In this document: positions 9,323-60,745 of the stretch, piece after piece | Position numbering within the stretch: position 1 is the first letter of the stretch | How the letters are laid out: each line of letters begins with the position of its first letter | Origin: Diplocarpon mali | Taxonomy: Eukaryota; Ascomycota; Leotiomycetes; Helotiales; Drepanopezizaceae | NCBI GenBank assembly: GCA_024741835.1 | Contig: JAENRP010000142.1 | Span: forward strand, 26,930 to 90,929 | Direction: 5' to 3' | Length of the DNA stretch: 64,000 nt | Position numbers and translations under genes: made by a program | The notes under the pieces: generated by a model | What the model saw: the letters and a program-made list of their open reading frames with translations, nothing else | Database searches by the model: none | What the model was told of the DNA's origin: nothing

Positions 9323-9399
9323 GTCCCTTTAAGGCGATATATTAATAGATAATTAACTTCGTTCTCTACCTACTTATTAATATCTATTTTATCTTTTTT

Positions 9400-40160: not shown

Positions 40161-41075
40161 TTATAACTCCTCTAACCCTTCCTCCTCTGCGCTTAAGGAG
40201 ACAAGCTCTAACTCTATTCTAGAGCTGGAACTCGCCTTTTAAATACGCCCTTGCCTAGAACGACCCCGACCTCCTTTTGCCGCCGCTGGCGCTGCCCTAC
40301 TAGCCGCTGCGCCTAATGCTACCCTTGCTATTGCAAGCCCTCCTCCCCTTATAAAAGACTCTGCTGCTATAGCGGTCCGCTCTACTAACGTAGCAATAGA
40401 CCTTAGGAGGCTTAGCATAGTTCGGCTAGATTACTCTAACCTTGCTAGCTGAGACTCGATAAGGTCGCTGCGCTCCTATTAGAAAGTTAGCGATCGATTC
40501 GATACTAATTCGGGTTTAACTTATAGTAACTATCGCCTAGACTCCCTTTAGCTAACTTACTATAGCCTTAGCTATAGAGCAGAGCTCCGTAAGGCTAGTA
40601 CGCTCGATTTGGAAGCGGCTAATCAGAGCCTCTGCGCTAGCTATTAATAAGAGGTTAATAAGGACCTAGGCGCGCTAGACCGCCTCCTGACGGAGCATCT
40701 TGCAGTTCCCTACTGAAACCGCTTGCGCATTATTATTATTGCTACTATTGTCCTCCTCTTGCTGCTAAGCAGCCTCCTCCTACTATTTCTCAAGGGCCGC
40801 GGATAGCGCTGCAAACTCCTTTCTAATATAGGAGGGAAGCTATAAGGTATTAGAATAAATAGAACTCTAGAGTCGATTCGAAGTACTTATAAGGATGCAC
40901 TCCGCCTTCTGCTCTTAGCACTAGTAGTACTTCTTACTACGCTCCGACTCAAATTCGCACTTATGCGCAATATCGCGCATAAGGCGCCGTATGCACTAGC
41001 AATAATAAACGCAGTAGGCCACCGCAAGGGCGCCTGACGGCAAGGGAATTGGCACTACGCGTATTAGACGCAATT
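40161..41075 (-). pseudogene. Gypsy A antisense six-cysteine protein (candidate new accessory gene)
   Basis: Minus-strand coding-like region, opposite to pol, between chromodomain and 3' LTR. The first frame reads VVPIPLPSGALAVAYCV, then a cluster at 40897-41013 with spacing C-x2-C-x11-C-x9-C-x2-C-x6-C (some Cys read Tyr from RIP), then IRKEFAALSAALEK and a Gln/Glu/Asn-rich stretch. From about 40.73 kb a second frame reads ERSDLIESQLARLE, LVERTAIAAESFIRGGGLAI, an Ala/Arg-rich basic part and a Ser/Glu-rich tail running into the gap. Stops sit at Gln/Trp codons. The cluster resembles Zn2Cys6 zinc domains with a longer first loop, so nucleic-acid binding is possible. The frame change may be an intron, an indel or RIP damage. 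Confidence 0.6.
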
Positions 41076-41368
41076 CGACCTTAGACTAGGGCAAACTTAC
41101 TTATAGTAGTTAGTAGTAGTAGTAGTAATTGTTTCTACTACTATGTATTAGCCTTATACTATAGTAGTAGGAGTAAGGGACCTATGCGATTATATATGGT
41201 TATTATATTAAGGAAGGAAGATCCTATAGGAGGAAAAACAAATTTAAGTATATAATGCGACTTACGCTAAACTAAATATAGAATAGTACCGTTTGCATAA
41301 TAATACGCTAAGTATACTACTATATAAAAATCATTATAACCTACTAACACTTATAGGCAAGCGTTCTT

Positions 41369-41383
41369 AAAGGGGGGAGGTAG
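41369..41383 (+). other. polypurine tract of Gypsy A
   Basis: AAAGGGGGGAGGTAG directly before LTR 3, the expected plus-strand primer site. Confidence 0.7.
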
Positions 41384-41690
41384 TATAACGGCTATACCTC
41401 CACTTAATGCAATTACCTAAGAGTATAGCGTTTTAAGGTTTTACAATCTCGATTCGATATAGGGTTTTCTTAAATCGACCCTAAAGGTGCAAAAGGATAT
41501 TCTTATATAATATTATATAAACGGACAAAGAGCCTTAAGCTGCTTATATATATAAGGAAGAAGGGCTCTCCCCTAAGGAGGGCTCTCTAACTTCTTCGTT
41601 TCCTTCGTATTAGACCTATAGGATACGCCTTTTGCACCACTTCTTGCTCCCATACTTGATCTCGCACTTCGGCGGTTCTATGTTGTTATA
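41384..41690 (+). repeat. Gypsy LTR 3, shared by copies A and B
   Basis: 307 bp, TATAACGG...GTTGTTATA. It serves as 3' LTR of A and 5' LTR of B. The sequence continues at once with AAAAGATCACC, which in copy A appears only after the 755-bp leader. Confidence 0.9.
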
Positions 41691-42523
41691 AAAAGATCAC
41701 CCCCTTTAATAATAAGACCTCCTTAATATATAAGTAGTAATTAGCTTTAGTCTAAGACCGATTGCAAGTTAATACCAACTTATATCCGAATAAGCAAGCT
41801 CGCTAAACCCTTATTTAAGGATCTATTATAAGATAAGCCCGAATATACCTCGAACCCTAGTACCTTTTAAAAACTAACCCCTTTCGAAACTATTAAAAAA
41901 TAGTAGAACTATTAAGCAGTTACTTTTTAACTAGCTAAGAGGTAGACCTATTTCGATCTACTTTTTATCACTTTTATATAAGAGAAGCCGGTTATTCTAA
42001 AGAAACTTTCCCTTAGTTTTAAGCCCAATTCTAATCCGCCGCGATCTAAGGAAAAGTCTTAAGATCTAAGTAGTTCTTCTTTATATAGAATAAGATTACC
42101 CCTTAGCTTAAAGCTACTTACGCCTTAGCTAAGGCCTTTTAAAGGAAAGACTATATTATTATAATTAACTAATTAAATGCCTTTAATATTAAACGCCGAA
42201 GCAATTAACTTCTTAACCCTTCGATTAAAAGTAAGGCAACCTTAGTATTATATTAAAAGATATCCGGTTCGCTCTTTAATAAGACTGCTCGCAGTCTAAG
42301 CGCTAAAAGTACTACCTGAGTTTTTAAGTCACTAGCCCTAAAGCCGACTACCCCTTTTCACTAAGATATACCAGCTAAGGCTAATTCTCCTGCTTTGCCC
42401 CTTAAGTAAGCTACCTACTAGACCTATAGTAAAATAGGCTATTATAAGACCAAGTGTCCTTCTATAGGTAAGATTAATACCTTAAAAGATATAAAGGAAG
42501 CTAATCCGACTTTAGACTTAATT
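41691..42523 (+). pseudogene. Gypsy B gag, 5' segment
   Basis: Colinear with 35183 onward in copy A. The zinc knuckle near 42406-42447 is more degraded (first Cys and His read Tyr). Interrupted by Copia-1 at TAATT. Confidence 0.75.
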
Positions 42524-42822
42524 TATAAGTTCTATACCGGTAATTGATATTCATGTGAATATAATTAAGTACTTATTATTAAAAAGAATCTATTATAATG
42601 TCTGTCTATTTTTATATAATTGAGATAGTACCTTTATACCTATGAATATCCTCCCTCTTATAGTCCCTCTTAGCTGTATATAGATATCCTTCTAAGGTCC
42701 TCTGGCTGAATAGCCGTCTTAAATATATACGAAACCCCTTATATCGCATATGGTATAGCTGTATAGGATGACCCTAGGAATAAGGGCAGCTTGCCTCTTA
42801 TATAGGAATCTATATACTAATA
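42524..42822 (-). repeat. Copia-1 3' LTR
   Basis: 299 bp. Plus strand begins TATAAGTTCTATACCGG and ends TATATACTAATA. Confidence 0.9.
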
Positions 42823-43387
42823 CCGGCAGTATTCTCTTTTGAAAAGACCTTTTCAACTCGTATAAGGAAGTATGTAAAACAGGTGTATAAAGGAGGTAGA
42901 TCGGTAGTAAATAATCAAACGGTAATAAAGAATAAAATAGTAAAGATAAATAGCTTAATAGCAAAGGCAGGTATAATAGGTAGTAAGGATAGTATATAGG
43001 AAATAGAATAGCAAAGATAAAGGCAAATAGCAAAGAGGGAAAGGAAAGGTATTTAAGTGATAGAAGCAATCTAAAGTCTTTGTTTAAGCCTTATAGTAGT
43101 ACGATTATAGTCCGGTTGCGTTCTAGTAGGTTTGAGACTCTTTATTAAAGAGTCATTTGGAGTTGTAATCCACTATGGCTATAAATTATAATGATTTGTA
43201 GAAGGGAAAAGAGGGGCCTTTAAGAAGGTATATATATTAAGCTTCCCTCCTCCTTTGATCTCTTAACTTTAACTCCTACTTCTTATAAGTAGGTCGATTC
43301 CCCCTTTTATTTTTAAGTTGATTAACCCTATAGTAGATCTTATCTTATATTATCCTATTAATACTATTATTATTATTAGTAAGTGCT

Positions 43388-44380
43388 TTGATTATTGGCC
43401 GACCTCCTTTAATATATATATTACTAACTTGGATAGTGCTTGAATGCAATTCGAAAGACCTGCCTAAGGCGTTTCAAGTGCTTTGCGTATATTATACGCG
43501 AGTGATATTAAGAAAGGAGGCTAGTAAGAATAATACCGGCTATATATACGCATTTAATACTTTTACTTTTAAGAAGTATGACTACTATATTGCGTAGTAG
43601 GTAAAGTGCATTTTAATAAGTACCCTTTAATATCCTCTTACTTTAATAACCTCTAATAGATATCCGTTTTAGATACTTATTTAAGCTTAGGATAAGTATA
43701 TTATCCTTTGAGATACTTGTATTAGCGGTAATATTAAAGCGATCTAAGAGGCGGCCTAAATCCTATCTAAGGAGACTTAGATATAAATCTCTATAGTCCT
43801 AAAGACTTAAGATGCCCTTTAGCTAGCTTAGCTAAATGAAGCTTATGCCCTCTGCTATAGTATCGACCTTGCGAACACCTAGTAGGCTATAAGTGCCTTT
43901 GAATCCATCTAATATTAATAACTAACTATTTGCAAGATCTATTGCGCGCTATTTAAGGCGGTAATACTACCCTTAGGCGTCTTAAGACTTAAGGCACTAA
44001 GGTGCTTAGCACCCTTTAATATATAAAGGGGTTATCTAGCTTAATTAAGGGCTATTCTCAAGCTCCTTTTAATAATATCTGCTGCTAAAAAGGCAAAGGT
44101 AGATAGGTGCCTTTTAAGGGCTTTCTAAAGGGTAAGGATCTGGATCTTAGTAATTTAGATAAGCCGAATCTAAAGGAGATTGCAGCTGCTCTTACTTAAG
44201 TATAAGCTTAAGAGGAGCAGGCCAACTTAGCTGCTACTTTAGGTAGTAAGGCTTCTAAGCCTTAAGGGTTTAGGGATCTACGCCTTAGAAATCCTAGTAC
44301 TTAAGATAAGTGCTTATTAAGGGTAGAATTGTTAGTAGATTATTATCTTTAGCAATATAATTATTGCTACTTTGCCATAA
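43388..44380 (+). pseudogene. Copia-1 antisense six-cysteine protein
   Basis: Opposite to Copia-1 pol and located between RNase H and the 3' LTR. The open part (43388-43597) begins MIIGRPPLIYILLTW. The cluster at 43484-43609 has spacing C-x2-C-x15-C-x11-C-x2-C-x6-C. The first and last positions are still Cys and the others read Tyr, one G-to-A step from Cys. The second half (KK-C-D-Y-C then V-K-C-I) has the same spacing and flanking Lys-Lys as in the Gypsy copies. Further on, another frame reads FLKGKDLDLSNLDKPNLKEI and EEQANLAATLGSKASKP, a helical, charged C-terminal region. As in Gypsy, a frame change separates the two parts. Confidence 0.55.
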
Positions 44381-44790
44381 CCTCCTTCTTTAATACTACT
44401 TAAGTAATAAAAAAAATGCAAGTATATACAAGTAAGTAAGAAAAGATAAAAAGAAGGTATTAATAGTAAGTGTAAGAATATAGTAAAAAAGATAAAAAAA
44501 GAAGGTAGTAATAGTAAGTATAGGAATATATCTTGTAGTAAAATAAAAAAAATAAAAAAATTACTAATAGCTTATAATTAAAAATATTGGATATTGTTAA
44601 TCTAAGACCTTTTTAAGTCTAGTTATGCCCTAATAGGCCTTTGTACCTATCCCTCCTTCCTAATAGTTATCGAATTAGTATCTACCAGTTACTAAAGGGC
44701 CTAATTTAGATTAGCTTTTATTATAGCATCGGCGGGGTTACTAGCGCTATCGATCTAATATATCTTTATAAGCTTCCTATTCTTGTACGA

Positions 44791-45180
44791 TTATCGAATA
44801 GCTATTATATCGATTATTAATCGCTTCTCCTTTATAGTGCCCAATTTGATAATATACTTATATAAGGAGAGGGAATCTGTATATACAATAGTAGGGAGGC
44901 GGGGTAGACTTAGCTTAGCTATTACTATATCGATCGTTGTAGCTATAGAAACTAGCATATTAATACCCGCTACTATAGCATATAGTTTGAAGGCTAGTAT
45001 AGCTCTTGTCACTCTCTTATACTTCATTAAGCTATAGTATAGAATATTGCCTTTTAAAGTAAACTGCGATTCTCCTTCCTCTTTAGTAGCTAGTATAATA
45101 ATATAGCCGATCTGCGAGCTTAAATCCTTATTATTAGTAAAAGATCTATCGATAAATGCAAATAGTTTAGCGTTTTGCAA
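44791..45180 (-). pseudogene. Copia-1 RNase H
   Basis: Longest surviving open frame of the element (129 aa). Blocks KLFAFIDRSFTNNKDLSSQ, IGYIIIL, KRVTRAILAFKLYA, TIVYTDSLSLYKYI and KEKRLIIDI are characteristic of fungal Copia RNase H ('FTDSSFANNKDLSSQIGY ... CTDSKSLYD'). It continues after a stop into DSASNPADAI. Confidence 0.9.
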
Positions 45181-45199
45181 ATTAATAGCAAGGTAGGTC

Positions 45200-46260
45200 A
45201 GGCCTCTTTTAAGGTTATTTTAGATCTACTTAAGTCGCTTATTTAGATTCTCTATATCTTAAACTATCGGATCCTAATGTTAGGCTATAGCTGATAAATC
45301 GAAGGAAGCTTCTAGCTGGCAGATTATAGCTAAATAAGCTCCTCTTACTCTCTACTCTAAGTATTATTGCTTATAGCCCTTTTGAGAAGTATCGACTAGT
45401 TTTAGCCTTTAGCCTTAGCCCTTTTATTATATATATATTATATTCCTTTCTTAGGAAATAATACACCTATTGAAAGCTAGTAATTCGGTGCTCGATAGGT
45501 ATTATATTAGCTTTATAAGGAATCCTACCCTTTTGATCTTATCCTCTTCCTTTTTTAAGAAGTCTGCTTCTCTAAGTATTAAAGTATTGTCTATTTATAT
45601 TCTTATTATATTAAAAAAGGGAGAAGTGCTTAAGGTTAATAATAGATAAGAGTTATAAGTTGAGTTGGTTATACTAAGATTGCTATAATAGTACTTATAG
45701 TAGGTGCTAAACTAGTGATTTCCTAATTTAGGAATGCTATAAAGCAGTAGTACTACTTTAAAGACTATACCTATAGGGAATAGCTTAGCGATATCTTATA
45801 AGGGAAATATAAATATATCGCATAGTAGCTTTAAAGCTACTTAGGTATACGCTTATATAATATCCTATAGGCTGAGAATGCCCTTTTTACCCTATTCTTT
45901 AAAGTATTCCTAGACTAATGCTAAAAGGCATACTAAAAGGCGTTAGCTTGCTTATTAGATCGTTGGAGATTGGGTAATTATACCTTCCTCCTTCTTACTA
46001 GTATTATTCTAAGCTTATACAACTAGGCGTAATTTCTTAAATAGGTGATCTATCTCCTTCCCCTTTATCTTATTAACTATTTTCAATTTGAAGATCCTTT
46101 TGCCTTTTATAGTAGGGTCATTTTTATTTATTAGTATAAATACCCTTCTGTTTATTAGCCCTTAGTACTCCTTTAGGCGAGATTGCTAGAAAGGGTGCCT
46201 AAAAGTGGTAATCTTGCCTTCTGCCTATAGCTTCTGTAACAGTTCCTAATTCCTATTCTC
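45200..46260 (-). pseudogene. Copia-1 reverse transcriptase
   Basis: The minus strand reads FKLKIVNKIKGKEIDHLFKK, then ITQSPTI--ASVQAF and DIIQAYT-VALKL, matching the 'SRLV.EIKG...KSRLV.QGYND ... TQSPTIQRASQR ... DITQAYTQS' blocks of a known fungal Copia clade. RIP stops throughout. Confidence 0.8.
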
Positions 46261-46499
46261 CTTCTCTATTAGAAATACCTCCGATTTAACTACGTATAGC
46301 TTATTATCTGCTCTAAAGGATATCTATATCTTAGCATTATAGTTGTTATCAATTATAGGAAGACTGGAAATAGGCTTAATAAAGGGAACCTCTACTCTTA
46401 GCGATTGCTTGCAGCTATTAAGTTGCGGCTTAACTAAGCGAGAGGGCTCTACTTCTTTATCGACATTGGTTGCGTTCTACTCTCTTTTAATAGTCGTTC

Positions 46500-47900
46500 G
46501 ATCCTTAGGTTTAATTCCTCTAGTTTCCTTTAGGCAGTTTTCTTTATTATCGATTTTAAATAGATATACGCTTATTAATCTAAAGTGCTTTATTCTACTG
46601 CCGATATTGACTATATAGGTTTCGTTCTCTAAGCCTAGGAACTCGAATAGGCCTATTTATCCTCCCTTCTTCTAATATACTAATACTAGGTCTTTTAGCC
46701 TTAAATTGTAGATATAAGTGGTTCTAGGGCCATTCCTTATACTTAAAGCATTATTAACCTTGCGAGTAGTATAGATCTTCCTAACTTCCTTTATAGCCTT
46801 TTTGATTATTACTACCCTTTATTCTATTAATGGATTTAGTAAATCTAATTCAATCAGCCTTAGATATGCCTTAAAAATAAGCAAAGTGGGAATCATCCTA
46901 TTAGGTCCTATTATATTATTAACTGCTTTAACAGCTATTTGCAGCCTTTTATCGTCGCTTAATTAGGGGTATTTAGCTATTATTATCTTAAAGGCATATC
47001 TTAAAGGGTAATAATACCATTCGACCTTGCCGATAGAGTAGTACGCCTCTATAGGAACCAGTTTAGGGATTATTCCTATAGATCTTAAAGAGCTTTTAAA
47101 CTCTACTAAGTTGAAGTTAGTACCGTAGTTATATACTATAAAATCAGAAGGTCTAATATACGTATCTAGCTAAGCTAATTTAAGGGCTCGAAATACTGCG
47201 TCGGCCGAATGTGCTCCTATTCCCTTTTGTAAGAACCTTGCGGCTCTAAATCCTATTGCTTTATCAACTATATAAAGGGCGTTCCTTCTACCGAACTAAG
47301 CAATATCAATATATATAGTATAATTAAAGTCGATATTATCTTATAGCTTAAATTGGAATCTATAAAGAGCGTTAGCGTAGAGTTAATAATATTAGTATAT
47401 TTCCCTTACTCTTGCTATAATACTAAAGTCGATATTATAACCGGCCTAGTTTAAGAGGTATTTAAAGCGTTTTACCAAAGGATATCTAAATCTTTTATAT
47501 AGCCTTCGGATCTCTATTTCTATTAAGTGGCATATATTGATTATACCCTTTGAAGTTATTAGAAGTTGCTCTATTATATTAAGTAAGAGCTATAGGTGCC
47601 TATATTTTCTAATAATTAAGTGTTTCTCCTTATTAATAATAAGCAAATTGCGCAGATTGTCGTATTTAGCTCCTATTTTATTAAGTTGTTATAAGCAGAC
47701 TAAAAATAGTATATCTGCCTTTATAATTAAGAACTCTATAGGGCCTGCTAGTATTCGAATAGTTGTCTTGCCGATTGCATTTTATAAACCTGCCTTAAAG
47801 GTAATTTTATGCTTTTCAGCGCTAAGTGGAGCTAGAACTGCGTCTTATATATTTTGCAGGGCTTTAAATTAGTTGATTCCTCTTATATTTTTATTTAAAG
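46500..47900 (-). pseudogene. Copia-1 integrase
   Basis: Core near 46.95-47.35 kb: NYTIYIDIA, VDKAIGFRAARFL, LDTYIRPSDFIVYNYGTNF and VPIEAYYSIGKVE, equal to the D-D-E core of fungal Copia integrase. The second catalytic Asp reads Asn. Confidence 0.8.
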
Positions 47901-47949
47901 CGCCTATATCGATTAGGAATCCTTAAAAGAATTGATCTATCTACTATAT

Positions 47950-50270
47950 TATAAATACCTTAGGGTCCGTTTGTATCGGTTTATTAACCCTTATTATTAA
48001 GAGGTATTTAGCCTTTTGCTTTTTAAGCTAGTTAAGTATAGTTCTTAAGTTATATTCCTAGTTAGAAGCTAGGAATATTATAGTAAAGTTAATATCACTA
48101 TCCTTAGGGTCGCTAATCGCTTAGTCCTCCTCTTTCAAAGACATTTCCTACTTATCCTTATTAGTCCTATTACCTTCCGAATATACTCTATTATCTTCTT
48201 AAGCTAGGTATACCTTATATATTTTATCTATTAGCTTATACCCTTCGGCTTATTAGCTTGCTATATAGCGAGACTTTTAAGCGGCTCTTTCTTCTTTTAA
48301 GTGCTTGCTACTATAGCAGTCCTTTTTCTGGCATATAATACACCTTATATAGCCTGGTTTCGATTAGAAGGTTATTCCTTTCTTATTACCCTAGGCAAAC
48401 TTCATCTTTCTATTCGAAAAGTGCGCTATAGATTGCCCTTGCTCCTCGGCTAAATAATATTAGGGTCTATTAGTAGCTGAACTAGGGTGCTAGGGTTTAG
48501 ATGGTCTGTCCTAAGCAACTACTCTTGCGCAAGCCCGTAGGCTATCTAATAGGATTAGGAACGTCGCTAGTGGCTTAAAAAGTGCTATTTAAAATAGCTG
48601 ATTCTTAGAAATACCTTATATAAGCCTATCTCTAATTGATCGATCGTTCCTTATACTAGCATATAAGCCTAATTGTAGGTTTTATAGCTCCTTAGTATAG
48701 TTTTTAAGTTAGGTTAGGATCGGTTTCTTCCTCTAATAGTCTTCTTATCGGAATAGGTCAAATATCAGCCGAAACCACCTCCTTAGGAATCTGCTACTTC
48801 TCTCTTCGGTCTTATAATTGGCCCGAATGGCCTCTACTAGCTTAGCAAACTTAAAGTTCTTATTTTATAAGTACCGATAGTAGTACGTCAAGGCCGAGTC
48901 TTATAGTATAGATGGAAAGGCTCTATATTATATGCTTTAATCTACTAAGGCTCTTTAGCATAAATCAGCAAATATATAAAGCTTCTTATTAAGGTAATCT
49001 TTCCCGCTTAAGTACTAAGTCTCTTTAGTATATATCTTACTTAAATTTATAAAGGTTTTAGCCTGATCTAAAGTCAAAGGTTTTATAATATACTAGGATA
49101 GTTAAGCGTTACTCTAATTAAGGTTTAGAAGCGCTCTTAAACCCCTCTTTATAGCAAAGGGTAGTAACGATCCGTCTCTTAATTGGATCGGCGGTATTAG
49201 TATCAGATTTAGGATCTTTAAGTATTGCAAAATTAAGGTCCGTCCTAATCAGGGTTAATAAGGTGTTCTTTTAAGGTTATACCATTCGGTTGTTTATCTT
49301 AGAGTATCTGCTTTATATAGGTTATCTTATAAAGTGTTATTATTATATCTAAGGTATCTTTGCTAAAGCGAGTCTTAGTATAGTATCTTCTGTTTAGCTA
49401 TAGTAACCCTTTGAGCAGGTGGCTTACTTATTCGCATAGACTTGGCAAATTCTGAAGTAGACCTTATTCTATATCTCGGAGATTGTACTATAACTGAGTT
49501 TAGTACTTCTTAGGTCTATAACTCTAGCTGGTCTTTTGACTACTTATTTCCTTCTTAGTGTACTATATCGAAAAGTGCCTAGCTGATTAAAACGCCCTTC
49601 TTATACTAAATATATATTCTATAGTACTAAAGGTTATCCCTTAAGCGTCGTCAAATGTCCTTATCTAGCGATTTAAAGTCGCTAACTATCTAATCTTAGA
49701 ATTCCTCTTAAAAGTCCTTAGTAAGGTATAGCCCTCTCCTTTTACTATCTTATAATATCTTTTAGAAGTTCTTTATATATTAATCCTTTAGTCTAAGGGC
49801 CTCTTCGCTAAGTTAATCCTCTTAAGGTCTTATATCCCTTTCAAGGTCCCTTAGTGTCTAGGGTTACTTTAGATTAAGCAGTATTAATAGTCTCCCCTCG
49901 ATCATTTCCTAATATTATCCGGATATTGCTCTACGCCTTAATAAGGTCCGAAAGAAGTCCGATATAGTCGTATTTTACGTATCGTTACGCTATTATCTAA
50001 TTATAGTTAAGATACCGATTGCACTCCGGTTTTGCCCTAATTATAATATATAATAGAACGTAGGTAGAAGAGGATAGTATCTACCTTTAAAGTAACAACT
50101 CTAGCTAAATTCGCATACCTTTCGCCTTTTCCCCTCTAATAGTAACTAATATTACTTTATACGTTTAAGTTGATATTTAAAGTAAGTCGGAAATACAATC
50201 AAGTACTTTTTAAAATCAAGAAAGAATTCTTTAGTTTAATAACCTTGCTATCTATAGTAAAGGTGCTACT
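47950..50270 (-). pseudogene. Copia-1 gag and protease region
   Basis: The zinc knuckle near 48.29-48.36 kb reads RCIICQKKDCYSSKHLKEER, equal to the 'CFVCKKEGCWSTNHTKEER' knuckle of this Copia clade. The remainder toward the LTR is Gag-like with many stops. The protease could not be delimited. Confidence 0.65.
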
Positions 50271-50279
50271 ACTAATTAG

Positions 50280-50578
50280 TATAGGTTCTATACTAGTAAT
50301 CGATATTTATATAAATATAATTAAATACTTATTATTAAAAAGAATCTATTATAATATCTATCTATCTCTATATAATTAAGATAGTACCTTTATACTTATA
50401 AATATCCTCCCTCCTATAGTCCCTTCTAGCTGCATATGAATATCCTTTTAAGGTCCTCCGGCTGAATAGCCGTCCTAAATACATACGAAACCCCTTATAT
50501 CGCATATGGTACAGCTGTGTAGGATGACCCTAGGAATAAGGGCAGCTTGCCTCCTGCATAGGAATCTGCGTACTAACA
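50280..50578 (-). repeat. Copia-1 5' LTR
   Basis: 299 bp. On the minus strand it starts TGTTAGTACGCAGATTCC, retaining the canonical TG end. Confidence 0.9.
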
Positions 50579-50583
50579 TAATT

Positions 50584-53500
50584 AAAAATAGGATTAAAAT
50601 AGAAGAAGATTAGAAAAACGAAAAGGCCTAAGAAAAGACTTTTACTTAAGCCTGCGAAAGTGCAACTTATTAAAGCTAGATCTTAACTCTTTAATAAAAG
50701 AGAAGCAATTCCTAACCTCTTATACTATTAGTATAAATGGACTTAAAGTATTATTATTAGCTTTAGCAGATACTAAAGCCCTTAGTTACCTGTTTTTAAA
50801 TCGTTCCCTTTCTATATATCTTTTAAAAGCGACTGGCTTTAAAATTCTTCCTCTTCCAGCCCCTATTCCTATCTATAGATTTTAAAATACCATTTGCGCA
50901 TAAGCTATATACTATATACGCTTTTATTTAATAATTAATAGAAGGCGTATCTACAACTACCCTTAGGTTATTCTGAACCTTAGCTAGTATAATGCTATTA
51001 TTAAAGTTAAATAGATACGCCGATTTTAATTTAAACTTAATCTAAAGGAAAACCAATTCATATAGCCTTTGTATTATCCCCTATCGCCCCATTTTATAAA
51101 GGAAATCCTCATTCGTCTTCTCCCTTCTAAAGGACTTCGAATCCGATCCGATTATTAAGCTAATATTAATTATAAGGAATAGGAAATAGCTATAAACAAA
51201 GCTCAATAGATCAATAGAAGACAGTCTTACGTTAATTTAATAGTCCTAGCTAAGCGCAAGATCCCTATTACTATTACTAGGCTAGTGCCCCTACTTATAA
51301 TTAAGCTAGATCTAAGAAAACATTCTAATACAAATCGACTATATTCTAACCCTATTCGCAAATGCCCTAAAGCTGCAGTTCCTATTTGCGAAATTAGCGC
51401 TAATACCTTTTATTATAATATAAAGTATAAGAAGACTAAGTTCTTTTAAACTAGTATTTATAAAGTAGATAAGATTCTAAAGGAAAGATATAAGCCTAAG
51501 AATCCTAATATTAAAAAGCTAATTAACAATCGACTCTTAAAATAGTACCGATCTTTAAAATAAGCCTTTTTAAAAAGAGATGCAGATACCCTCCCTTCCT
51601 ATTAGTACTACAATTATAAGATATAATTGAAAGGGCCTTTGCCTAACGCCTATTTGCCCTTCTATTATCAATCTACTAAAGAGCTTAAGGTTATAAAGGA
51701 GTACTTACTTAAGAATTTAGATAAAGGCTTTATTAAGATAAGTACTAGCCCCTTTGCTTTACTAGTACTATTTATAAAGAAGGCCGATAGTAGCCTCCGA
51801 TTTTGCATAGACTATCAGAAGTTAAATGCACTAACTTAAAAGGACGCTTACTTAATTCTAAGGATAAACGAGCTTTTAAGGCAAGTATCTAAAGCTAAGA
51901 TTTTTATAAAACTGGATATTCGAGCTACTTTCAATCGAATACAAATAGACCCCGAATTAGAGGAATATACCACCTTTCGAATAAGGTATAGATCTTATAA
52001 ATACAAGGTTCTTCTATTCGGCCTCTATAATAGACCTAGTACTTACTAGCAGTATATAAATAATATTCTTTTAAATTACTTAAATGATTTTTATATAGTA
52101 TATTTAAATAATATTTTAATTTACTTTAAAAATGTTAAAGAGCACTAGGGTTATATTAAAAAGGTGCTAAAATAACTCTTAAAGGCTGGCCTTTAAGCGG
52201 ATATTAAAAAGTGCGAATTCTATATTATTTATACTTAATATCTCAGATATATTCTAATAATATCTAAGATCGAACTAGACCTTAAAAAGGTCGAACTACT
52301 ATATAATTAAAAGTATTTAAAAACTATTATTAAAGTAAAGTCCTACTTAGGATTTTATAAGTTCTACTAATAATTTATTTGCAACTTTAAGCTAATTGCT
52401 AAACCCTTTTCTATTCTAACCTAATTAATAGTACCTTAGGATTAGATAGAAGAGTACCGAATCGCTTTTAAAGAGCTTTGCAAGCAGTTGCTCTCAATTT
52501 AGCAGATTTATTATTTTAACCCTAACTTGCTTATAAAGCTGGAAACTAATGCTTCTAATAGCATTATTACTAAAGTACTTTCTTAGTAATACTTCGATAA
52601 GCAATAGTACTTAATCGGCTTTTATTTGCATATACTCTTTAGCTATAAATTTAATTAAGAAATATATAATAAAGAACTCTTTACTATTATTAAATCTTAC
52701 TATAAATAGAGACCTAAGCTTATATCACTTAAAGAGTGAGTTAATATTTACTTAGATCACCGCTCCCTTAAGTACTTTATAACTATTAAGGTTCTAATTG
52801 TAAAATAGTACTAATAGATAGAATTTCTATCTAACTTCAATTTTCGAATCGTATATACTCTTAGTAAAGACAATCGGAAGGCTAATATTCTTAGCTACTA
52901 AGAGCAGGATATGCCGGTTTATAAATAAGCGAAGCTAGATAGCCGATCCTAAGTTTTGCTTTCCCTTGCTTAGTTAGACCTTTGAATCAATACCAAACTA
53001 GCTAACAAATTTCTTATCGAATCTACTAAAGGCACCTTTGCCTTAATATTAATTAATATTCCTAATTCAACCCTAAATCGACCTAAGGATTCCTTTAATT
53101 TAATTAAGAAACTTTATTAAAATAATTGTAAATCCTTTTAAGAGATTCGCGCCGACCTCCTTAAAAACTACTCTTTAAAAGACAGATTGCTTTACTTTAA
53201 AGAGCGTCTTTATATATACTATAATACTCCCTTATACACTCGTCTAATTTAAGAAGCTTATAATCAACCTTTAAGCGCGCACCTTAATAGCTTAAAGACC
53301 TATTAGCTACTTGCTCTTAAGTATTATTAAGTTAGAATAGGTTCAAACTATAAAAGATTTATTACAAACTATAGACCTTATCAATTCTTGCATTCGAAGA
53401 CAATTAAATAATAAAGCCTCTTATAGCCTCTCCCTATTCCTAACTATCCTATGCAGCACTTATATATAGATTTTAAGGATTTCCCTCTTAATAAGTACAG

Positions 53501-53806
53501 TTTTGATTAAATTCTGGTTTTTATAAACCGACTTAATAAGAGTGCTATTATAATCCCTTATTAAAAAGATATTGACACTTAAGGAACTGCCTGATTATTC
53601 ATTTAATAAATATATTAATTCAGCTATACTCTAAAGACAATTACCTTAGACCAAGGCCTTTAATTCGTCTCCTTATTTTAGAAAGAGTTCTACTATATTA
53701 TTAGTATTAAGATTAAACTCTCTATAGCATACTATAAGGAGACTAATGGCTAAATGGAGATTATAAACAAGTATATTGATTTAAAGCTATAGCCTTTTAT
53801 TAATTA
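50584..53806 (+). pseudogene. Gypsy B gag end, protease, RT, RNase H and start of integrase
   Basis: Colinear with copy A from 35.96 to 39.24 kb. The open piece 51627-51839 carries the RT blocks (TKELKVIKEYLLKNLDKGF, FCIDYQKLN). The RT box region reads YLNN, losing both Asp residues, so B is mutated further than A. Interrupted by Copia-2 inside integrase at AATTA. Confidence 0.85.
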
Positions 53807-54003
53807 TGTCGTGCAGAATAGGCGGAATCTCCACTTATTCTAAAGACTCTCCACGTGACTCTACTAAGTCATAGACTCTCCCTTTTCTTTCCGAAGTCTC
53901 CTTATCATATATACATTAGATAATAATACAATTAATCATCTTCTCCTACTTCTGCAAGCCTCTTAAGCGACCTAATAAAGGCCTTCTAGCCGACCGTACT
54001 ACA
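53807..54003 (+). repeat. Copia-2 5' LTR
   Basis: TGTCGTGCAGAATAGG...CGTACTACA. Little mutated: canonical TG and CA ends remain. Confidence 0.92.
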
Positions 54004-54029
54004 GTTATAAGCCCTATAAGCACTTTAAT

Positions 54030-55560
54030 ATGCTTTCTCTTTATATGCAACCGGCTAAAGGGCCCTTTAAGCTCTTGACCGACTTTCCGAGTATTTATAA
54101 TAACTCGAAGGACCTTTATTTTCAATTAATAAATCTCCATTTTCTAATCGAACCTTATTTGCAAACTCCATTTATATACCTAACCTTTTTCACTAGACTC
54201 TATTTAATATATCTAACGCTTTAAGCATCTTTAAGCCTTGCCTTAATACCTCTGCCTTTTAAGTGAAGTGATTTAGTAAATATATATTCTTTACTAAGCT
54301 CTATAATATTACTATTTTTACCGATCTAAGACTCCTATTTAAGTTAATCATAAAGACCGAGCCTTAAGCTCCCTTTATATAAGAGCTTAAGGAATTGGAA
54401 ACGGCTAACCTTTATATAGTATACGCAAGGTTATATAAAGAGTATATAGCGACTTTATCCGAATAGATTTATACCCGCTTTCCCCTAGGAGATCTATTAA
54501 AAGCTCCTCTTCTATAGGCTTCTTATAAAGATATTAAAGATAAATATAAAATCCTAATAAAGGAGCACCTTATGCATAAGGAGACTTAAAAGACCTAATA
54601 CAAATACTATAAACTACTATTAGAATAGGTCTTTAAGACTGTCGATAAAACGCTTCTAGCTTTTATAATAGCTTAAGTATAAATCCAAGCTAAGAAGCTC
54701 TCCTCTTTAATACCTAATAGAGATACTCCTATAAATAGAACTACTACTAATAACCTATATACTAATTTGGTAAACTAGTAACTCTTATTCTAAGGCCTAG
54801 TATCTATTTTAAAGCGTGATATTGCGCCTTCTGATAAGGCTATTTAGTCTCAAATAAGGCTTTAGTACTGCGATATACTACGCTAAGGCAAGACTAAGAG
54901 AACTAACACTTAGTAATAGATCTAGGAGTAGTAGGAGGCGTACTACCTAATAGAGCAATACAGTTTTCCTAAGATCAAAGGGAGACTAAGAGTAATTGAC
55001 TTTTTAGACTTAATTATAGTAAAGATTAATCTAAGTTAGGCGACTTACTTAAAGGAGGAAATAATTACTAATAAGCAAATAGGAACCTTATATAAGTATA
55101 ACCTAATACAGCTAAGCTGCGCCTTAATAGGTATTGAATCTAATAAAGCGATTGATAATAAAGGATTAGCAGTTTTTACTACTTAAGAGTCTCTCTTAGA
55201 TGCTGAAACCCCTTTGCAAGCTCTAGCGAGCAGCTCCTGAAATCGCTTCATAAGCTCTAAAAGGGAGATTAGGCTTAAGTGCCCTTGTAAAGGCTCTACT
55301 AACTACTATTAGAAGCCCTAGGACTATCGGAAACTATTATATGCTATAGATAGGCGTAAGGAAAATATAAAGGCTCTCCCTTTATAAGAGAAGGTCCTAC
55401 GAATATAAAAGGCGTTAAATGCAGGAGACTAGTTTAAGGGTCTCTAAGTATAGTTTAAGGAGAATGATATTATAGTAATAGCAATTGATAAATTTAAAGG
55501 AAAGGCTTTAGCCTTTAAGAAGGATGGTTTAAGCAAAAGGGAGAACTTACTAGTCTTTAT
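54030..55560 (+). pseudogene. Copia-2 gag
   Basis: Starts with an open 64-codon piece (MLSLYMQPAKGPFKLL). Near 55.28 kb a degenerate zinc knuckle reads CPCKGSTNYY-KP-DY, where His and the last Cys read Tyr or Asn. Stops fit Gln/Trp. Confidence 0.6.
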
Positions 55561-55639
55561 AGTAATAGATCCCTTTGCCTTTAATGCATTTAAAGAATCG
55601 TTTAATATCTACTACCTCTTTAAGCTAGAATGCCACCTA

Positions 55640-57100
55640 CTCTCCTTAAGTACGCTCCTTAATAGTTGCGCAGCTACTTATATCGTTAATTCAAAGGATT
55701 TACTTATCGCAGGCACCTTTAAGCCTTCTGGCGACTTATAGTAATATATTAAAGTAGGTACCTTAAGACTCCTAATTATTAGGAAAGGTAATAGATATAT
55801 AGCAGACTCTCTTCTATAGCATAATAGCTCTCCTATAGAGATAACGCTTTATAATATTGCTATTATAAAGGAGTTTACTATTAATATCATCTTAAAGAGG
55901 CTCCTTGCGGATAAGGGTTTTTAGTACTTTAAGGTAGACCTTACTTTGCGCTTTAAGAGTATTGCAGATTCTATAAAGCAAGCTTAGTTAAAGCGTTGCT
56001 ATAATCTTATTTTCTTTAAATATAAGCCTATCAACTATTTAGATCTCCTAAATATACTTTAATATAACTTCTCTGCTTTAATAGCATTCCTTATAGCTGA
56101 GACGACGCTTTATAATAGGTTTTAGTCTAGCTATACGCCTACTAGGGTGCGGGATGATAATATATATATATAGTACCTTTGCGCTGGCTACCTAGGCGTA
56201 AAGGCTCTTTAAGTGCTAGTCAAGTGCGCTAAGGGAGTAAAGATCAAGGGAATATAGAAGCTAAAGTGCCCTATATATATAGTAGCGTCTGCTAAGCAAG
56301 TTATTTCTTATACTACCTTTAAGAACCGATCTCTAAGGCCCTTTTTTAAGATCTTTTAGGATCTCTTTAACTTTCTAAACAACTTATATAATAGCTGCTT
56401 ATAGGTTCTTTTAATTAAGGACAAGTATAGTAGTATACTTTAGATATTCCTACTAAGATCGAAGGGCAGAAATGTGGTTATAGAGGTCCTTTAGGCCTTT
56501 AAAGCATAAGTGAAATGCTAATATAGGCTTTCTATTTGCAAAATTAGGTAAGATAATAATACTTTAATAATCTCCTTAAGGGAAGACTCTCTTATAGAGT
56601 ACTAGAGATAGGTAAAAGAGGAGGGAATCGATTTAGAACTTACTCCTGCCTATATATATTAACTTAATAGAGGCATAGAGCGAGTATAAGGGAGTTGATT
56701 AAACGCTTTATTAAGATGAGAATCCACGCTAGGCTTTTAGTAAGCCTTTGGCTAAAGGTTATAAAGGCTGCTATATACCTTTATAATATCTCCTTACTTG
56801 CTAGGAAGAAGATGATCTTATTAAGCGAGGCTCTTTATAATTGGTTTAAGTAGTATTTTCGATTCTATAAGCTGCTACTTATTAAGTAGATAACAGCAAG
56901 CTTAAAGCCTAACTAGAGTCGCATTTATATATATAGTGCTTGCGCATACCCTTTAATTAAGGAGAAGAAGGCAAAGAGGGACTGTCGAACCTTTAAAATT
57001 AAACTATAAGGGTACTTAAGTTACTTAATTAGATATATTACCTTTAATATTTATAGAATCTAAGTTCCTATACTCTAATAAGTAATAACAACTTATAATA
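55640..57100 (+). pseudogene. Copia-2 protease and integrase
   Basis: Near 55.66-55.75 kb: NSCAATYIVNSKDLL, matching the 'DSGATTHIVND' protease site. Integrase-like sequence follows to about 57.1 kb, including RNLYNSC-type linker and IKEKKAKRD blocks, too degraded to place each catalytic residue. Confidence 0.6.
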
Positions 57101-58079
57101 TCGAATTTGATAAGTCTTTCTTTTATAATTTAAAAGCTAAGCGCGCAAACCCTATATTATACTAAGAACTTAAGATAACCCTTTAATTGATTAAAGAGAG
57201 AGAGGGAGCTTAGGACACTAAGTTCAAAGGCATTTTTAAAGAATCGGAGCTTATCGCAGGGCCGAATGCAATCGCTATAGAAGAAGCCGCTATATAAGAA
57301 GAGCCTATATTATAGACTGATGCTACTTTATAGCCTTTAACTAATAATATAAAAGGCCTTAACTTAAATCCAAATTTTTTAAAAGACCTGCTTAAAAACT
57401 CAAGGGTAAAAGCAAGTGAACTAGAAGCCACTTCGCTAGTCTTTAAGAAGGCAAATAGCAACTAAAGCTTAAGGGTAATAATTCCTTATAAAGGCCCTAT
57501 TGAAGAAGGAACTATAGACGACTTTAAGGGAGTCTTTAAAGACGAGTTCTATAAAGCGATCGGCAGATCTTTAGCCGCTATTCTATATAAGAATAGAGAT
57601 AGCTTAAGGGCTTTAAGATAAAGTCTTTAATTATAAAGGTAGGCCTTAGTAAATTCTAATAAAAGGCTAAAGGCACTACTACTAAGATCTAAGAGGAGCT
57701 TTAATAGTCTTATAAAAAGTAACTTAGTAAGAGGAGCGGGCCTTAATAATATAATACCTTAAGTTATAATACTAGCTTAAAGACTATAGGCTTAGGAGAT
57801 AGAGCTACCTAGACTCTTAAAGGAACCTCTAATAATAATAAAAATAAAGGAGGAGACTTATAGAGAAAAGCGCAAAAAGGAACTCCCTTTTCCTAGGTAA
57901 AAGAGGATAAGACGCTTAAGCATTAAGTAATAAGAGACTTTAAAAGTATATACTACTGCTTTAAAGTATATACTCTTTTAAAGTAATATTAATTTACCTT
58001 ACTCCTTATATATATAAGAGTTTATATCGACCTTTTAAGCAAACGAATAGATAAAGGAGAATAAGAAGGACTATCTAAT

Positions 58080-59080
58080 AGTTTATACAATTATTAAAGC
58101 TGCAGTTAATAATTGGGCAAAGGATAGAGCGTAGTCTCTTAACCGCCTATAGTACTAAGGCTCTCTACTAAAGCCTTTAAAAAGATGGCTAGACCTAGAG
58201 AAGTACCCTTTTAGCAAATAATTTAAAGAAGGAGGGCGCTAGGAGATTAAGAATCTAGAATCTCAAAGTTGTTAAAGAATTATGCGAAAGGACTACTCAA
58301 AGCCCCTACTAATACTATTAAAATGGGTTTTTACCTATAAGGTTAATAGCTCTAGCGAGCTTCTAAAGTGCCGATTATAGCTAATTATATAAGGAGATCT
58401 CTAAGATAAAGCTTTAATTTTCTCAACCTACGCAGCCACTCTTATAGCAAGGTCTTTTAAAGTACTAATAGCACTTATTATATATTTCGATATAAAAGTA
58501 AAGCAGTTCGACGTTATTAACGCATTTGTCAATACTCTTAAAGACCTAAGGAGTACTCTAGTCATATACTTCCTACCAGATGGCTTTAAGCGCCTTAATA
58601 TAGTAGTAGAACTGGACTGCGCGCTCTATAGGCTAAAAGACTCTCTGGCGCTATAGTATAAGAACTTCGCAGGAACGCTTAAGGGCCTTTAACTTAAGCT
58701 ACTAAGCGAGAAGCCTTATATTTTTATAATAAAAGATTATATAATCTTTATAGCGTTTTATATTAATAATATTCAAGTATTATATAAGGCCTTTAACCTA
58801 GATCGGGCGACTCGTCTAATTAAAGACCTAAAGAGGGCATACGAGCTTACTATTATAAGAAATATCTTCTAATTCCTTAAAGTAAGGATTATTTAAGATA
58901 AGAAGGTAAAGAGGATCTCTTTAGTTTATAATACCTATATTAAGAAGATCGCTTAAAAGTTCGGAGCTAATATAGGGAAAGTGCCTAGTACTCTACTATT
59001 AAAAAAGGAGTTTATTAAAAACTTAAGGCAAGCTTCCTTAAAAAAGGTAAAGGAGTATTAAAAGAAAATAAGCTCTATTC
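58080..59080 (+). pseudogene. Copia-2 reverse transcriptase
   Basis: Clear blocks: IKVKQFDVINAFVNTLKD, VIYFLPDGFKR and ELDCALYRLKDSL-L-YKNF, equal to 'QYDVVNAFVNA ... MPDGYK ... L.RALYGLKQSPLLWY'. Confidence 0.85.
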
Positions 59081-59199
59081 TCTATATAGTAATTATAATA
59101 TACCTAGATATTGCGTTTATAGTCTCCTAACTATCTTTCTTCTTAACTAATCTAAGCTTTAAGCACCTCTTAGCTATAGACTAGACGCTTTAATACCTA

Positions 59200-59680
59200 T
59201 ATAATATACGCTTCTTAAGAATTGCCTATAGCTTTAAGGCTAAGGAATACCAACTAATTGCGTCTTTAGATGCTTCTTTTAAAGATGATTAAAAGACCTG
59301 TAGATCCTCTTAAGGATACGTCTTCTTCCTATTTAAAGGACCGATTATTTAAAAAGCGAATCGCTAAGCGACTATTATACTCTCCTTTACTAAAGTAGAA
59401 CTCTATAGCATAGTTTCTACTGCAAAGGGGATAATAGCTATAAAACGCCTCTTTAAGGAGATTCGCATAGACTTCCTCTTTAAATAAAATATATATTATA
59501 ATAACTAATAGATAATTCAGCTAATTATTATAAAGAATAAGAAGATTAAGACAAGCCTTTAATATATCGAAATCAGCAATATATAGATCTGCTAAGAGTA
59601 CTAGAGAGGAAGCTTTTAAATAATCTACCTCCCTATTAAAGAGATATACGCAGATAGGCTTACTAAGAACCTAAACTGCT
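59200..59680 (+). pseudogene. Copia-2 RNase H
   Basis: LIASLDASFKDD--TCRSS-GYVFFLF and FTKVELYS, the 'FSDASFADD..TRRSSQGY ... TEAELLAL' pattern. The catalytic Asp in LDASF is kept. Confidence 0.8.
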
Positions 59681-59879
59681 AAAAGTTTAAGAGCTTTATT
59701 TATTTATTAAACCTTTAGAGCTTTTAAATAATCGTTTAGCAACTCGCACTTGCTAGCGAGTAGTCACTTATTACTAGGAGACTCGTACTTATAAGCTCCT
59801 ACTCTCTTATAATTATATTTATTTATTTTCTCTTATAAAGTATACTGCAAAAGCTCTCCTTTTTTAAAAATACAAAATA

Positions 59880-60745
59880 GGTAATATTCCTAAGCTGCTA
59901 TTATAAGGTGCGACCCTTTCTCAGATCCTCCTAGCTAGGGTTAGGAGCTGCGAAGCTATAGCCATAAGCTCCGCACGGATCTCCTCCTAAGAGAGGCCTA
60001 GAGGCACTCCCTCGGCTAGAGGCCTACTAGCGAATATACTAGCAACAGCAAGGGCGAAGGCAGAGGGTGCGGCAGCGGCAAAGGCAGGAGCGGCGATGAT
60101 AGGGGCAAGGGAGACGAACGGAGATATAAACGGGTCGGCGTTAGCGGCAGCGGTAGGGATAGGAGCGGCGGTAGCAAGTAGGGGGAATAGGGCAGTAGAG
60201 GATAGGCCGGCGGCGAACGCAAATAGTATGCTAGGAGTAGGGGAGGCAGTAGCATTACTACTTATAAGAGTAGCAGGTCCTCTTAGCATTAGGGTCCGAT
60301 CGCTCCTATCTTTTAAAAATCAGCTTAAAACTTAATAAGACTTAATAAAACATACTATAGAAGCTCTAAAGCGCACCCTTTACTATATTAAGCAGTAGCG
60401 CTACCTCCTCCTTAAAGGCGCTGTAGGCGTAGGCCGATACGACAGCCTCTTAAGAGGCAAGGAGAGGTCCGCTAGCCTGCTAGCAGCTATTGCTTAATAC
60501 TATATAATAAACGCAATATGCACTAAAGGTGCTATTAAAGTATTAATAATCGAGATTGCTAATACTCTTGCGTGCGATATAATACACGTATGCATTATCG
60601 CGCTCTATCGTAGGCTTAGGCATATAGCGCGCAGTAGGGGCGGGGCTCTTAGGTGGCGGCGGCGGCAGGGGCGGCGGCGGCGGCAAGGGCGATAGCGGCG
60701 GCGGCTTATTGCCTAGCAAGCGCTAGGAGGACCGCGCTAAGGTTG
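59880..60745 (-). pseudogene. Copia-2 antisense six-cysteine protein
   Basis: Opposite to Copia-2 pol, between RNase H and the 3' LTR. The minus strand reads a proline-rich start (60640-60715; PPPLSPLPPPPPLPPPP), then PKSPAPTARYMPKPTIERD. The cluster at 60483-60590 has spacing C-x2-C-x10-C-x10-C-x2-C-x6-C (two positions still Cys, the rest Tyr by G-to-A change). After it come ASGPLLAS-EAVVSAYAYSAF and KEEVALLLNIVKGAL. A second frame holds an open Ala/Pro-rich stretch (59987-60289) and then EEIRAELMAIASQLLTLARR. The order (Pro-rich, Cys cluster, helices, Ala/Pro linker, helix) supports a real protein, and its GC-rich Pro codons explain the local GC peak. Confidence 0.6.

What the first reader, a model, noticed from the sequence alone, without database searches (positions are those of the whole stretch)
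40161..60745. Antisense six-cysteine gene conserved in three unrelated LTR retrotransposons
Seen in sequence: one Gypsy family (two copies) and two Copia families each carry, between pol and the 3' LTR, a coding-like stretch on the strand opposite to pol. Each has the cluster C-x2-C-x10-15-C-x9-11-C-x2-C-x6-C, with an invariant second half (C-x2-C-x6-C), at 40897-41013, 63026-63142, 43484-43609 and 60483-60590. Established knowledge: Zn2Cys6 factors use C-x2-C-x6-C-x5-12-C-x2-C-x6-8-C, and one retrovirus group is known to encode an antisense regulatory protein. Inference: fungal LTR elements may share a captured or ancestral antisense zinc protein that regulates transcription, integration or silencing.
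Basis: partly seen in the sequence, partly recalled or inferred. Interest (0 to 1): 0.87.

Follow-up and report, generated by a model that had tools for sequence, protein, structure and literature searches.

The report
Spliced antisense genes in fungal retrotransposons
Three families of jumping genes in a fungus each carry an extra gene on the opposite strand, and for two of them, one Gypsy and one Copia, that gene appears to be the same cysteine-rich kind, which suggests a shared helper protein of unknown role.

Summary
The observation largely holds. In this RIP-mutated fungal window, one Gypsy family (two copies) and two Copia families each have a coding stretch between pol and the 3' LTR on the strand opposite to pol. 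The best evidence is annotated proteins of Diplocarpon coronariae. P0003 (270 aa, E 1.6e-44) matches the antisense frame of the Copia at 43 kb; it has six cysteines, C-x2-C-x17-C-x9-C-x2-C-x6-C, and fits an antisense intron at 43379-43436 that was noted beforehand. P0001/P0002 match the antisense frame at 60 kb but start after its cluster. Of 74 listed P0003-like last exons in the genome, 66 have a pol piece on the opposite strand at the expected side; none contradict, 8 have none. The Gypsy and 43-kb Copia peptides are homologous by profile and by alignment to P0003. The 60-kb Copia peptide shares only cysteine spacing. No Pfam family fits, neither Zn2Cys6 nor DUF3716. Antisense extra genes at this place are a known kind (plant Grande, Botrytis brtn), so this is a new variant: a cysteine cluster plus predicted coiled coil, apparently shared across the Gypsy/Copia divide. 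Zinc binding, transcription and regulation are inferred, not tested.

The parts
42524..42820 (-). 3' LTR of the 43-kb Copia element (pol on the minus strand)
   Evidence: direct repeat with 50280-50576, 89%
50280..50576 (-). 5' LTR of the 43-kb Copia element
   Evidence: direct repeat with 42524-42820
44794..45219 (-). open RNase-H-like pol piece of the 43-kb Copia element (name by recalled motifs; no Pfam hit)
   Evidence: 142-aa open frame; 150 listed genome matches, 138 of them used; no Pfam match
43330..43378 (+). antisense gene of the 43-kb Copia, exon 1
   Evidence: 43330-43377 aligns with residues 1-16 of P0003, 81% identity; wobble test not met here, 0 of 4
43379..43436 (+). antisense-strand intron: GTAAGT donor, CTRAC branch-like site, TAG acceptor
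   Evidence: of 28 rows shown (37 aligned): donor 25, branch-like site 22, acceptor 25; junction fits P0003
43437..43628 (+). antisense gene of the 43-kb Copia, exon 2, holding the six-Cys cluster 43484-43609 (3' limit approximate)
   Evidence: tblastn with P0003; 7 of 8 informative transversions at codon position 3
43686..43880 (+). antisense gene of the 43-kb Copia, exon 3 (limits approximate)
   Evidence: tblastn with P0003, same frame as exon 2 after a 19-residue gap
43936..44298 (+). antisense gene of the 43-kb Copia, last exon
   Evidence: tblastn with P0003 residues 149-269, 60% identity
53817..54003 (+). 5' LTR part of the 60-kb Copia element
   Evidence: direct repeat with 61179-61365, 91%
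58405..58653 (+). reverse transcriptase piece of the 60-kb Copia
   Evidence: RVT_2, E 0.014, below the curated cut-off
59924..60313 (-). last exon of the 60-kb Copia antisense gene (Ala/Pro-rich)
   Evidence: tblastn with P0001 residues 45-167, 65% identity, E 7e-49
60360..60590 (-). exon of the 60-kb Copia antisense gene with the Cys cluster (60483-60590); 5' limit of the exon unknown
   Evidence: P0001 residues 5-44 match 60360-60479 only; cluster read in copies and in the little-mutated copy L117
61179..61365 (+). 3' LTR part of the 60-kb Copia element
   Evidence: direct repeat with 53817-54003
37059..37352 (+). reverse transcriptase piece of Gypsy copy 1
   Evidence: RVT_1, E 0.00039, below the curated cut-off
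40897..41013 (-). six-Cys cluster of the antisense gene, Gypsy copy 1
   Evidence: P0003 residues 52-82 align here in the antisense frame, E 1.6e-4
41055..41100 (-). intron-like stretch upstream of the cluster, Gypsy copy 1
41384..41683 (+). 3' LTR of Gypsy copy 1
   Evidence: repeat family D1
63026..63142 (-). six-Cys cluster of the antisense gene, Gypsy copy 2
   Evidence: P0003 residues 49-64 align here, E 0.002
63184..63229 (-). intron-like stretch (46 nt) upstream of the cluster, Gypsy copy 2
   Evidence: donor GTAAGT in 31 of 31 rows, TAG acceptor in 25 of 31; no CTRAC branch site, only a CTAAT or TTTAAT site
63509..63808 (+). 3' LTR of Gypsy copy 2
   Evidence: repeat family D1

Best explanation
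Each of the three LTR-retrotransposon families carries a spliced accessory gene on the strand opposite to gag-pol, between pol and the 3' LTR. In the Gypsy and the 43-kb Copia family it is the same gene by descent: a short first exon on the 3'-LTR side, a phase-1 intron, then an exon with a six-cysteine cluster (C-x2-C-x17-C-x9-C-x2-C-x6-C in the intact relative) followed, in the Copia version, by a long predicted coiled coil. Shown: coding antisense frames, with intact annotated relatives, for both Copia families; position and orientation. Shown by protein fit only, not by RNA: the introns of the Copia families. Inferred: the Gypsy intron; transcription from a promoter at or near the 3' LTR; zinc binding by the cysteines; dimers through the coiled coil; and action in trans on the element's own nucleic acid (transcription, RNA or integration) as an accessory regulator. 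The 60-kb Copia has an antisense gene at the same place whose common origin with the others is not shown.
For: Annotated relatives: P0003, 270 aa, E 1.6e-44, 53% identity; P0001 E 4.8e-13 and P0002 E 1.7e-7. P0003 maps to 43330-44298 on the antisense strand. Intron-like stretch in both Gypsy and 43-kb Copia, phase 1, 14 and 16 codons before the first Cys (my arithmetic); the Copia one was written down before P0003 was found. Orientation: 66 of 74 listed P0003-like last-exon hits have the RNase-H-like piece within 2.5 kb on the opposite strand, on the pol side, 0 contrary, 8 with none. For the 60-kb Copia, of 8 pairs of P0001 hit and RVT_2 hit within about 3 kb picked by eye, 4 are opposite and on the pol side, 4 lie on the other side. 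RIP-robust wobble test: 30 of 41 informative transversion columns within 60 codons of the clusters at antisense codon position 3, p 2e-7; LTR control 7/6/6. Gypsy-Copia homology: hhalign score 33.5 and 33.05, 0 of 120 null windows reach it; P0003 against four of 31 Gypsy copies: 0, 0, 3 and 5 of 2000 shuffles. Coiled coil: helix 123-180, block means up to 91 pLDDT.
Against: The 60-codon window of the wobble test was set after seeing the columns; over the whole aligned regions, in the cluster frame, it is 35 of 65 (Gypsy 7/15, 60-kb Copia 14/29, 43-kb Copia 14/21; p 5e-4, Gypsy alone not significant). With the exon model from P0003 the 43-kb Copia gives 9 of 17 (p 0.08), good only in exon 2. 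A sense frame that shares the wobble position would show the same bias. By columns with a stop in all copies, the most open frame of the 60-kb Copia region is a sense frame (1 of 340 columns; the antisense cluster frame has 3). P0001 and P0002 as annotated do not include the cysteine cluster. Permissive intron motifs are no more frequent than chance in the window (8 donors against 6.55). No intact Gypsy relative was found (one query, a search that needs shared exact words). No in-frame ATG upstream of the Gypsy cluster in 29 rows. The cysteine part of the structure model is below pLDDT 50. No RNA or biochemical data.
Confidence: 0.55

Rival explanations
1. Real antisense genes, but not zinc regulators: the protein is a structural or replication accessory (nucleic-acid chaperone or Gag-like factor) that merely happens to sit on the other strand.
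For: No Pfam family fits; the cysteine part has no confident fold; a coiled coil fits structural roles too.
Against: Antisense expression would need its own promoter, which is more usual for a regulator (inference); no capsid-like Pfam match.
Confidence: 0.25
2. The antisense stretch works mainly as RNA: an antisense transcript makes double-stranded RNA with gag-pol RNA and controls the element; the open frame is secondary.
For: A review names both options for antisense ORFs of LTR elements (PMC7264820, passages read); antisense introns imply a transcript.
Against: Frame open over 270 aa in P0003; protein-level similarity across Gypsy and Copia; third-position bias near the clusters.
Confidence: 0.12
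3. The Cys pattern in the 60-kb Copia is coincidence: its antisense gene is real but unrelated, and only Gypsy and the 43-kb Copia share a gene.
For: Profile scores 14-15, reached by 5 of 240 null windows; peptide of the little-mutated copy L117 against P0003: 330 of 2000 shuffles reach the score; against four Gypsy copies 564 to 881 of 2000; annotated P0001/P0002 skip the cluster.
Against: Cys columns attested in copies; CVRC and a C-x(0,1)-F-N motif are shared by eye; same place and strand.
Confidence: 0.5
4. Artefact of RIP: Tyr-rich mutated sequence gives false cysteine patterns on any strand.
Against: Pattern null 0.275 against 8 overlapping hits; Cys present at most of the columns in some copies; intact relatives.
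Confidence: 0.02

Closest known systems
brtn, additional antisense gene of Boty-like Gypsy elements of Botrytis cinerea (Zhao et al. 2011, not held; cited in PMC8365987, PMC7264820, PMC4227169; passages read)
   Same: fungal LTR element; antisense to gag-pol, between pol and 3' LTR
[quoted passage not shown] review PMC7264820, passages read)
   Same: place and strand; function unknown; some are nuclear
   Different: no cysteine cluster and no sharing between Gypsy and Copia mentioned in the passages I read
HTLV antisense gene HBZ (recalled; the PMC7264820 passage mentions only an HTLV antisense promoter in the 3' LTR)
   Same: antisense, spliced, expressed from the 3' side (recalled)
   Different: bZIP protein without such a cysteine cluster (recalled); no homology claimed or tested
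Zn2Cys6 fungal transcription factors (PF00172)
   Same: six cysteines, ending C-x2-C-x6-C; a coiled coil after the cluster (the family feature is recalled)
   Different: 17 residues between second and third Cys, not 6; no Pfam match
DUF3716 (PF12511), six host genes in this genome
   Same: six-Cys fungal domain of similar layout
   Different: no Pfam match of the antisense proteins; shuffles give no clear support for homology

Membership tests
antisense accessory ORF between pol and 3' LTR (aORF-3R kind, including brtn) | on the strand opposite to gag-pol | tested here: met
   43-kb Copia: 66 of 74 listed P0003-like exons opposite to the pol piece, 0 same strand, 8 none; Gypsy and 60-kb Copia: weak RVT_1 and RVT_2 hits on the other strand in the window
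antisense accessory ORF between pol and 3' LTR (aORF-3R kind, including brtn) | between pol and the 3' LTR | tested here: met
   window coordinates of LTRs and pol pieces
antisense accessory ORF between pol and 3' LTR (aORF-3R kind, including brtn) | kept in most copies of the family | tested here: inconclusive
   40 copies listed per family, the listing limit, but found with the antisense region itself as query, so copies without it were not sought; pol lies beside it in 22 of 29 Gypsy and 27 of 29 60-kb Copia loci
brtn gene family | sequence homology to brtn | not testable with these tools
   brtn sequence not at hand; its paper came up in no search of the library
Zn2Cys6 (PF00172) | C-x2-C-x6-C-x5-12-C-x2-C-x6-8-C | tested here: not met
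   P0003: 17 residues between second and third Cys; no PF00172 match
DUF3716 (PF12511) | match to the Pfam profile | tested here: not met
   no PF12511 match at E up to 10 for P0001-P0003, L117, 9 copy peptides or the 5 rows of A2; best shuffle results 16 and 20 of 1000 among 12 pairs, true DUF3716 pairs 0 of 1000
zinc-binding protein | binds zinc | not testable with these tools
   needs protein

The most novel reading that the evidence does not exclude
One antisense, spliced, six-cysteine coiled-coil gene has moved between the Ty3/Gypsy and Ty1/Copia superfamilies of a fungus (and, in diverged form, into a third family), with an ATG made by splicing, and serves as a common trans-acting regulator of unrelated retrotransposons.
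Probability: 0.25. Interest if true: 0.82.

Novelty: new variant of a known kind. Interest (0 to 1): 0.62.

Why it matters
Antisense extra genes of LTR elements are known in plants and in Botrytis, and the review I read passages of gives none a known function. A version with a defined cysteine cluster and a predicted coiled coil, present in intact form, and apparently shared by a Gypsy and a Copia family, gives a concrete protein to test and implies gene exchange between retrotransposon superfamilies.

Tried and rejected
Pfam on single RIP-mutated peptides (6 peptides, one weak TetR_C_2 hit at E 0.13, 9 of 78 copy peptides, nothing). Protein search with one of 31 Gypsy peptides: no candidate shares enough words. 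DUF3716 was my first guess from Cys spacing; rejected. Weak Pfam hits below the cut-off were set aside: DUF6610 E 0.054 and DUF2726 E 0.052 for P0003 or its piece, DUF6109 E 3.2 for P0001, two low-complexity hits for L117. PDB by sequence: nothing credible. NCBIfam: one weak unrelated hit. Ungapped nucleotide comparison of Gypsy and 43-kb Copia at a wrong offset, then at the right one: purine/pyrimidine match 0.69-0.74 over 43 codons, nearly equal at all codon positions, so it does not separate coding from plain DNA similarity; in the scan the best window was 0.735 against 0.692 on the opposite sense, weak alone. Permissive intron motif scan: not above chance; a strict motif has two donors in 31 kb, 43379 (+) and 40560 (-), without a null. 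RVT_2 genome search to orient the 43-kb Copia: only 150 of 1082 candidates were scored and I found no fitting neighbour there, so the RNase-H-like piece was used. BLASTP between pol frames of the elements: no hits. The first alignments, with unoriented loci, were discarded. The structure model is from one sequence, mean pLDDT 52, so no fold search was made.

Parts given and rows dropped: A2 holds 5 of 30 60-kb Copia peptides, chosen for few stops and many Cys; one search used 1 of 37 43-kb Copia rows; one search used 4 of 31 Gypsy rows. L067 was left out only. Loci whose pol or LTR did not align: 7 of 29 (pol) and 4 of 29 (LTR) Gypsy, 2 of 29 60-kb Copia. One search left out heavily gapped rows. 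One search printed 28 of 37 43-kb Copia rows. In one search, 12 of the 150 hits (distant or short) were left out; none lies near a P0003 hit. One search lists only part of its 205 matches. In the alignment the codon next to the donor is misaligned in most rows, so its upstream counts are approximate.
Full report
What the window is. The 64-kb window is part of contig 142 of a 49.4-Mb fungal assembly of 676 contigs. From 33 kb on it shows RIP-like mutation: TA/AT is 1.56, and 96% of the differences among the aligned Gypsy copies are transitions. The best own-genome matches reach 95-96% identity to an annotated Diplocarpon coronariae protein, and the size is near that of the Marssonina coronaria NL1 draft (50.3 Mb, 589 scaffolds; PMC7864672, passages read). 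I infer a Diplocarpon genome (Leotiomycetes, Helotiales). Three elements matter: a Gypsy element present twice (3' LTRs at 41384 and 63509), a Copia with LTRs 42524-42820 and 50280-50576 and pol on the minus strand, and a Copia with LTR parts 53817-54003 and 61179-61365 and pol on the plus strand. Weak RVT_1 and RVT_2 hits, below the cut-offs, support the other two.

The observation. Allowing Tyr for Cys, the pattern occurs in the 31 kb only at these places, 8 overlapping hits against a mean of 0.275 per Markov run; the pattern was fitted to them. In genome copies most claimed columns show Cys in some copies, but not the second one in Gypsy (0 of 31) and not the second and third in the 43-kb Copia (0 of 17 each). 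The intact relative P0003 settles the Copia case: second Cys real, third Cys at 43547 with spacing x17.

Is it coding? Three lines. First, annotated relatives. A 220-residue peptide from one 43-kb Copia copy, X at stops, finds one protein at E up to 10 among 87 candidates: P0003, D. coronariae PZA11_002365, E 1.6e-44. Five copies of the 60-kb Copia peptide find two proteins among 78 candidates, both D. coronariae. P0003 maps to the window as 43330-43377, about 43437-43879 (with a 19-residue gap, an intron or an insertion) and 43936-44298 on the antisense strand; P0001 as 60479-60360 and 60313-59924. P0001 and P0002 begin beyond the Cys cluster, with first residues that L117 shows in another frame, so for the 60-kb Copia the cluster itself has no annotated intact protein; the little-mutated copy L117 is open over it for 95 codons, with Tyr at one of the six places.

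Second, introns. On the antisense strand, just before the cluster, the 43-kb Copia has a 58-nt stretch with GTAAGT (25 of 28 rows shown), a CTRAC site (22 of 28) and TAG (25 of 28); the Gypsy has a 46-nt stretch with GTAAGT (31 of 31) and TAG (25 of 31) but only a CTAAT or TTTAAT site. The first was noted before P0003 was found, and P0003 fits that junction (residues 16-18). Both are phase 1 and both following exons begin TG, so splicing would make an ATG in both. In the first-exon frame upstream no copy examined shows an ATG (13 rows of the 43-kb Copia; 29 rows of the Gypsy), whereas P0003 has its annotated start in exon 1. The donor has no RIP target in it, so its conservation says little, and a permissive motif is no more frequent than chance (8 donors against 6.55).

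Third, a RIP-proof wobble test. RIP makes transitions only, so I counted columns with a transversion in at least two copies. Within 60 codons of the cluster (a window set after seeing the columns), codon position 3 holds 6 of 8 (Gypsy), 13 of 17 (60-kb Copia) and 11 of 16 (43-kb Copia), 30 of 41 in all, p 2e-7. Over the whole aligned regions, in the cluster frame, it is 7 of 15, 14 of 29 and 14 of 21, together 35 of 65, p 5e-4, with Gypsy alone at p 0.20. By the P0003 exon model the 43-kb Copia gives 9 of 17 (exon 1 0 of 4, exon 2 7 of 8, exon 3 1 of 1, exon 4 1 of 4; p 0.08); by P0001 frames the 60-kb Copia gives 20 of 29, p 9e-5. Controls: the Gypsy LTR shows 7, 6, 6; of the 67 Gypsy pol columns 29, 23, 15 fall in the three phases, and the 8 columns with at least five minor copies, a cut chosen afterwards, fall in one phase. 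A sense frame shares the same wobble position by my arithmetic. Stop columns favour the antisense frame over that one: 5 against 13 (Gypsy), 3 against 5 (60-kb Copia), 9 against 11 (43-kb Copia). But in the 60-kb Copia another sense frame has fewest, 1 of 340, so there the case rests on P0001.

Orientation in the genome. Of 74 P0003-like last-exon hits listed, 66 have the RNase-H-like piece within 2.5 kb on the opposite strand and on the pol side (median gap 480 nt), none on the same strand or the other side, 8 have none. For the 60-kb Copia, among 8 pairs within about 3 kb picked by eye fit and 4 lie on the other side, perhaps other elements. For the Gypsy, pol aligns beside the antisense region in 22 of 29 loci and the LTR in 25 of 29.

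Are the three related? Gypsy and the 43-kb Copia: the best of 36 frame pairs is antisense by antisense at the cluster, E 2.4e-4; cluster alone, scores 33.5 and 33.05 in the two directions, 0 of 120 null windows; P0003 against four Gypsy copies: L009 3, L012 5, W1 0 and L011 0 of 2000 shuffles reach the score; tblastn of P0003(1-90) to the two window copies E 1.6e-4 and 0.002 in the antisense frame. The 60-kb Copia: profile scores of 14-15 that 5 of 240 null windows reach, and 330 of 2000 shuffles against P0003. So two families share the gene; the third is undecided.

What it may do. P0003 has the cluster at residues 33-74 and a predicted helix at 123-180 (block means to 91 pLDDT), while the cluster itself is not predicted with confidence. 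No Pfam family passes its cut-off. A cysteine cluster followed by a coiled coil suggests a dimeric nucleic-acid-binding protein; that is inference. Zn2Cys6 fails by spacing and profile, DUF3716 by profile, with no clear support from shuffles.

Known kind. [quoted passage not shown] Boty's brtn is also mentioned in PMC8365987 and PMC4227169 (passages), and a Monilinia transcript resembles BRTN (PMC5987419, passage). In the ten paper searches answered (listings only, apart from the passages named) I saw no report of an antisense cysteine gene shared by Gypsy and Copia; the library lacks most subscription journals.

Noticed in passing
58400-60920: In the 60-kb Copia, pol (1500 nt, 28 rows) has 1 informative transversion column, the antisense end (1021 nt, 30 copies) has 29: the antisense end is far more diverged than pol.
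   Followed up: partly
59900-60920: One sense frame of the 60-kb Copia region has a stop in all copies at only 1 of 340 columns, fewer than any other frame; unexplained, perhaps because the stretch is GC-rich.
   Followed up: no
17001-21000: GC rises to 0.62-0.72 between poorer blocks.
   Followed up: no
1-15000: AT-rich block, GC 0.22-0.29, TA/AT 1.41, another RIP-like stretch.
   Followed up: no
40075-40160 and 62210-62279: Runs of N at the same place in both Gypsy copies, just after pol; cause unknown, left alone.
   Followed up: no
L003-L008: Six host DUF3716 genes over the Pfam cut-off in this genome, none in 14 control genomes.
   Followed up: partly
44794-45219: The RNase-H-like pol piece is free of stops or has one in most listed copies of the family, although other parts of pol in the window have many.
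   Followed up: no
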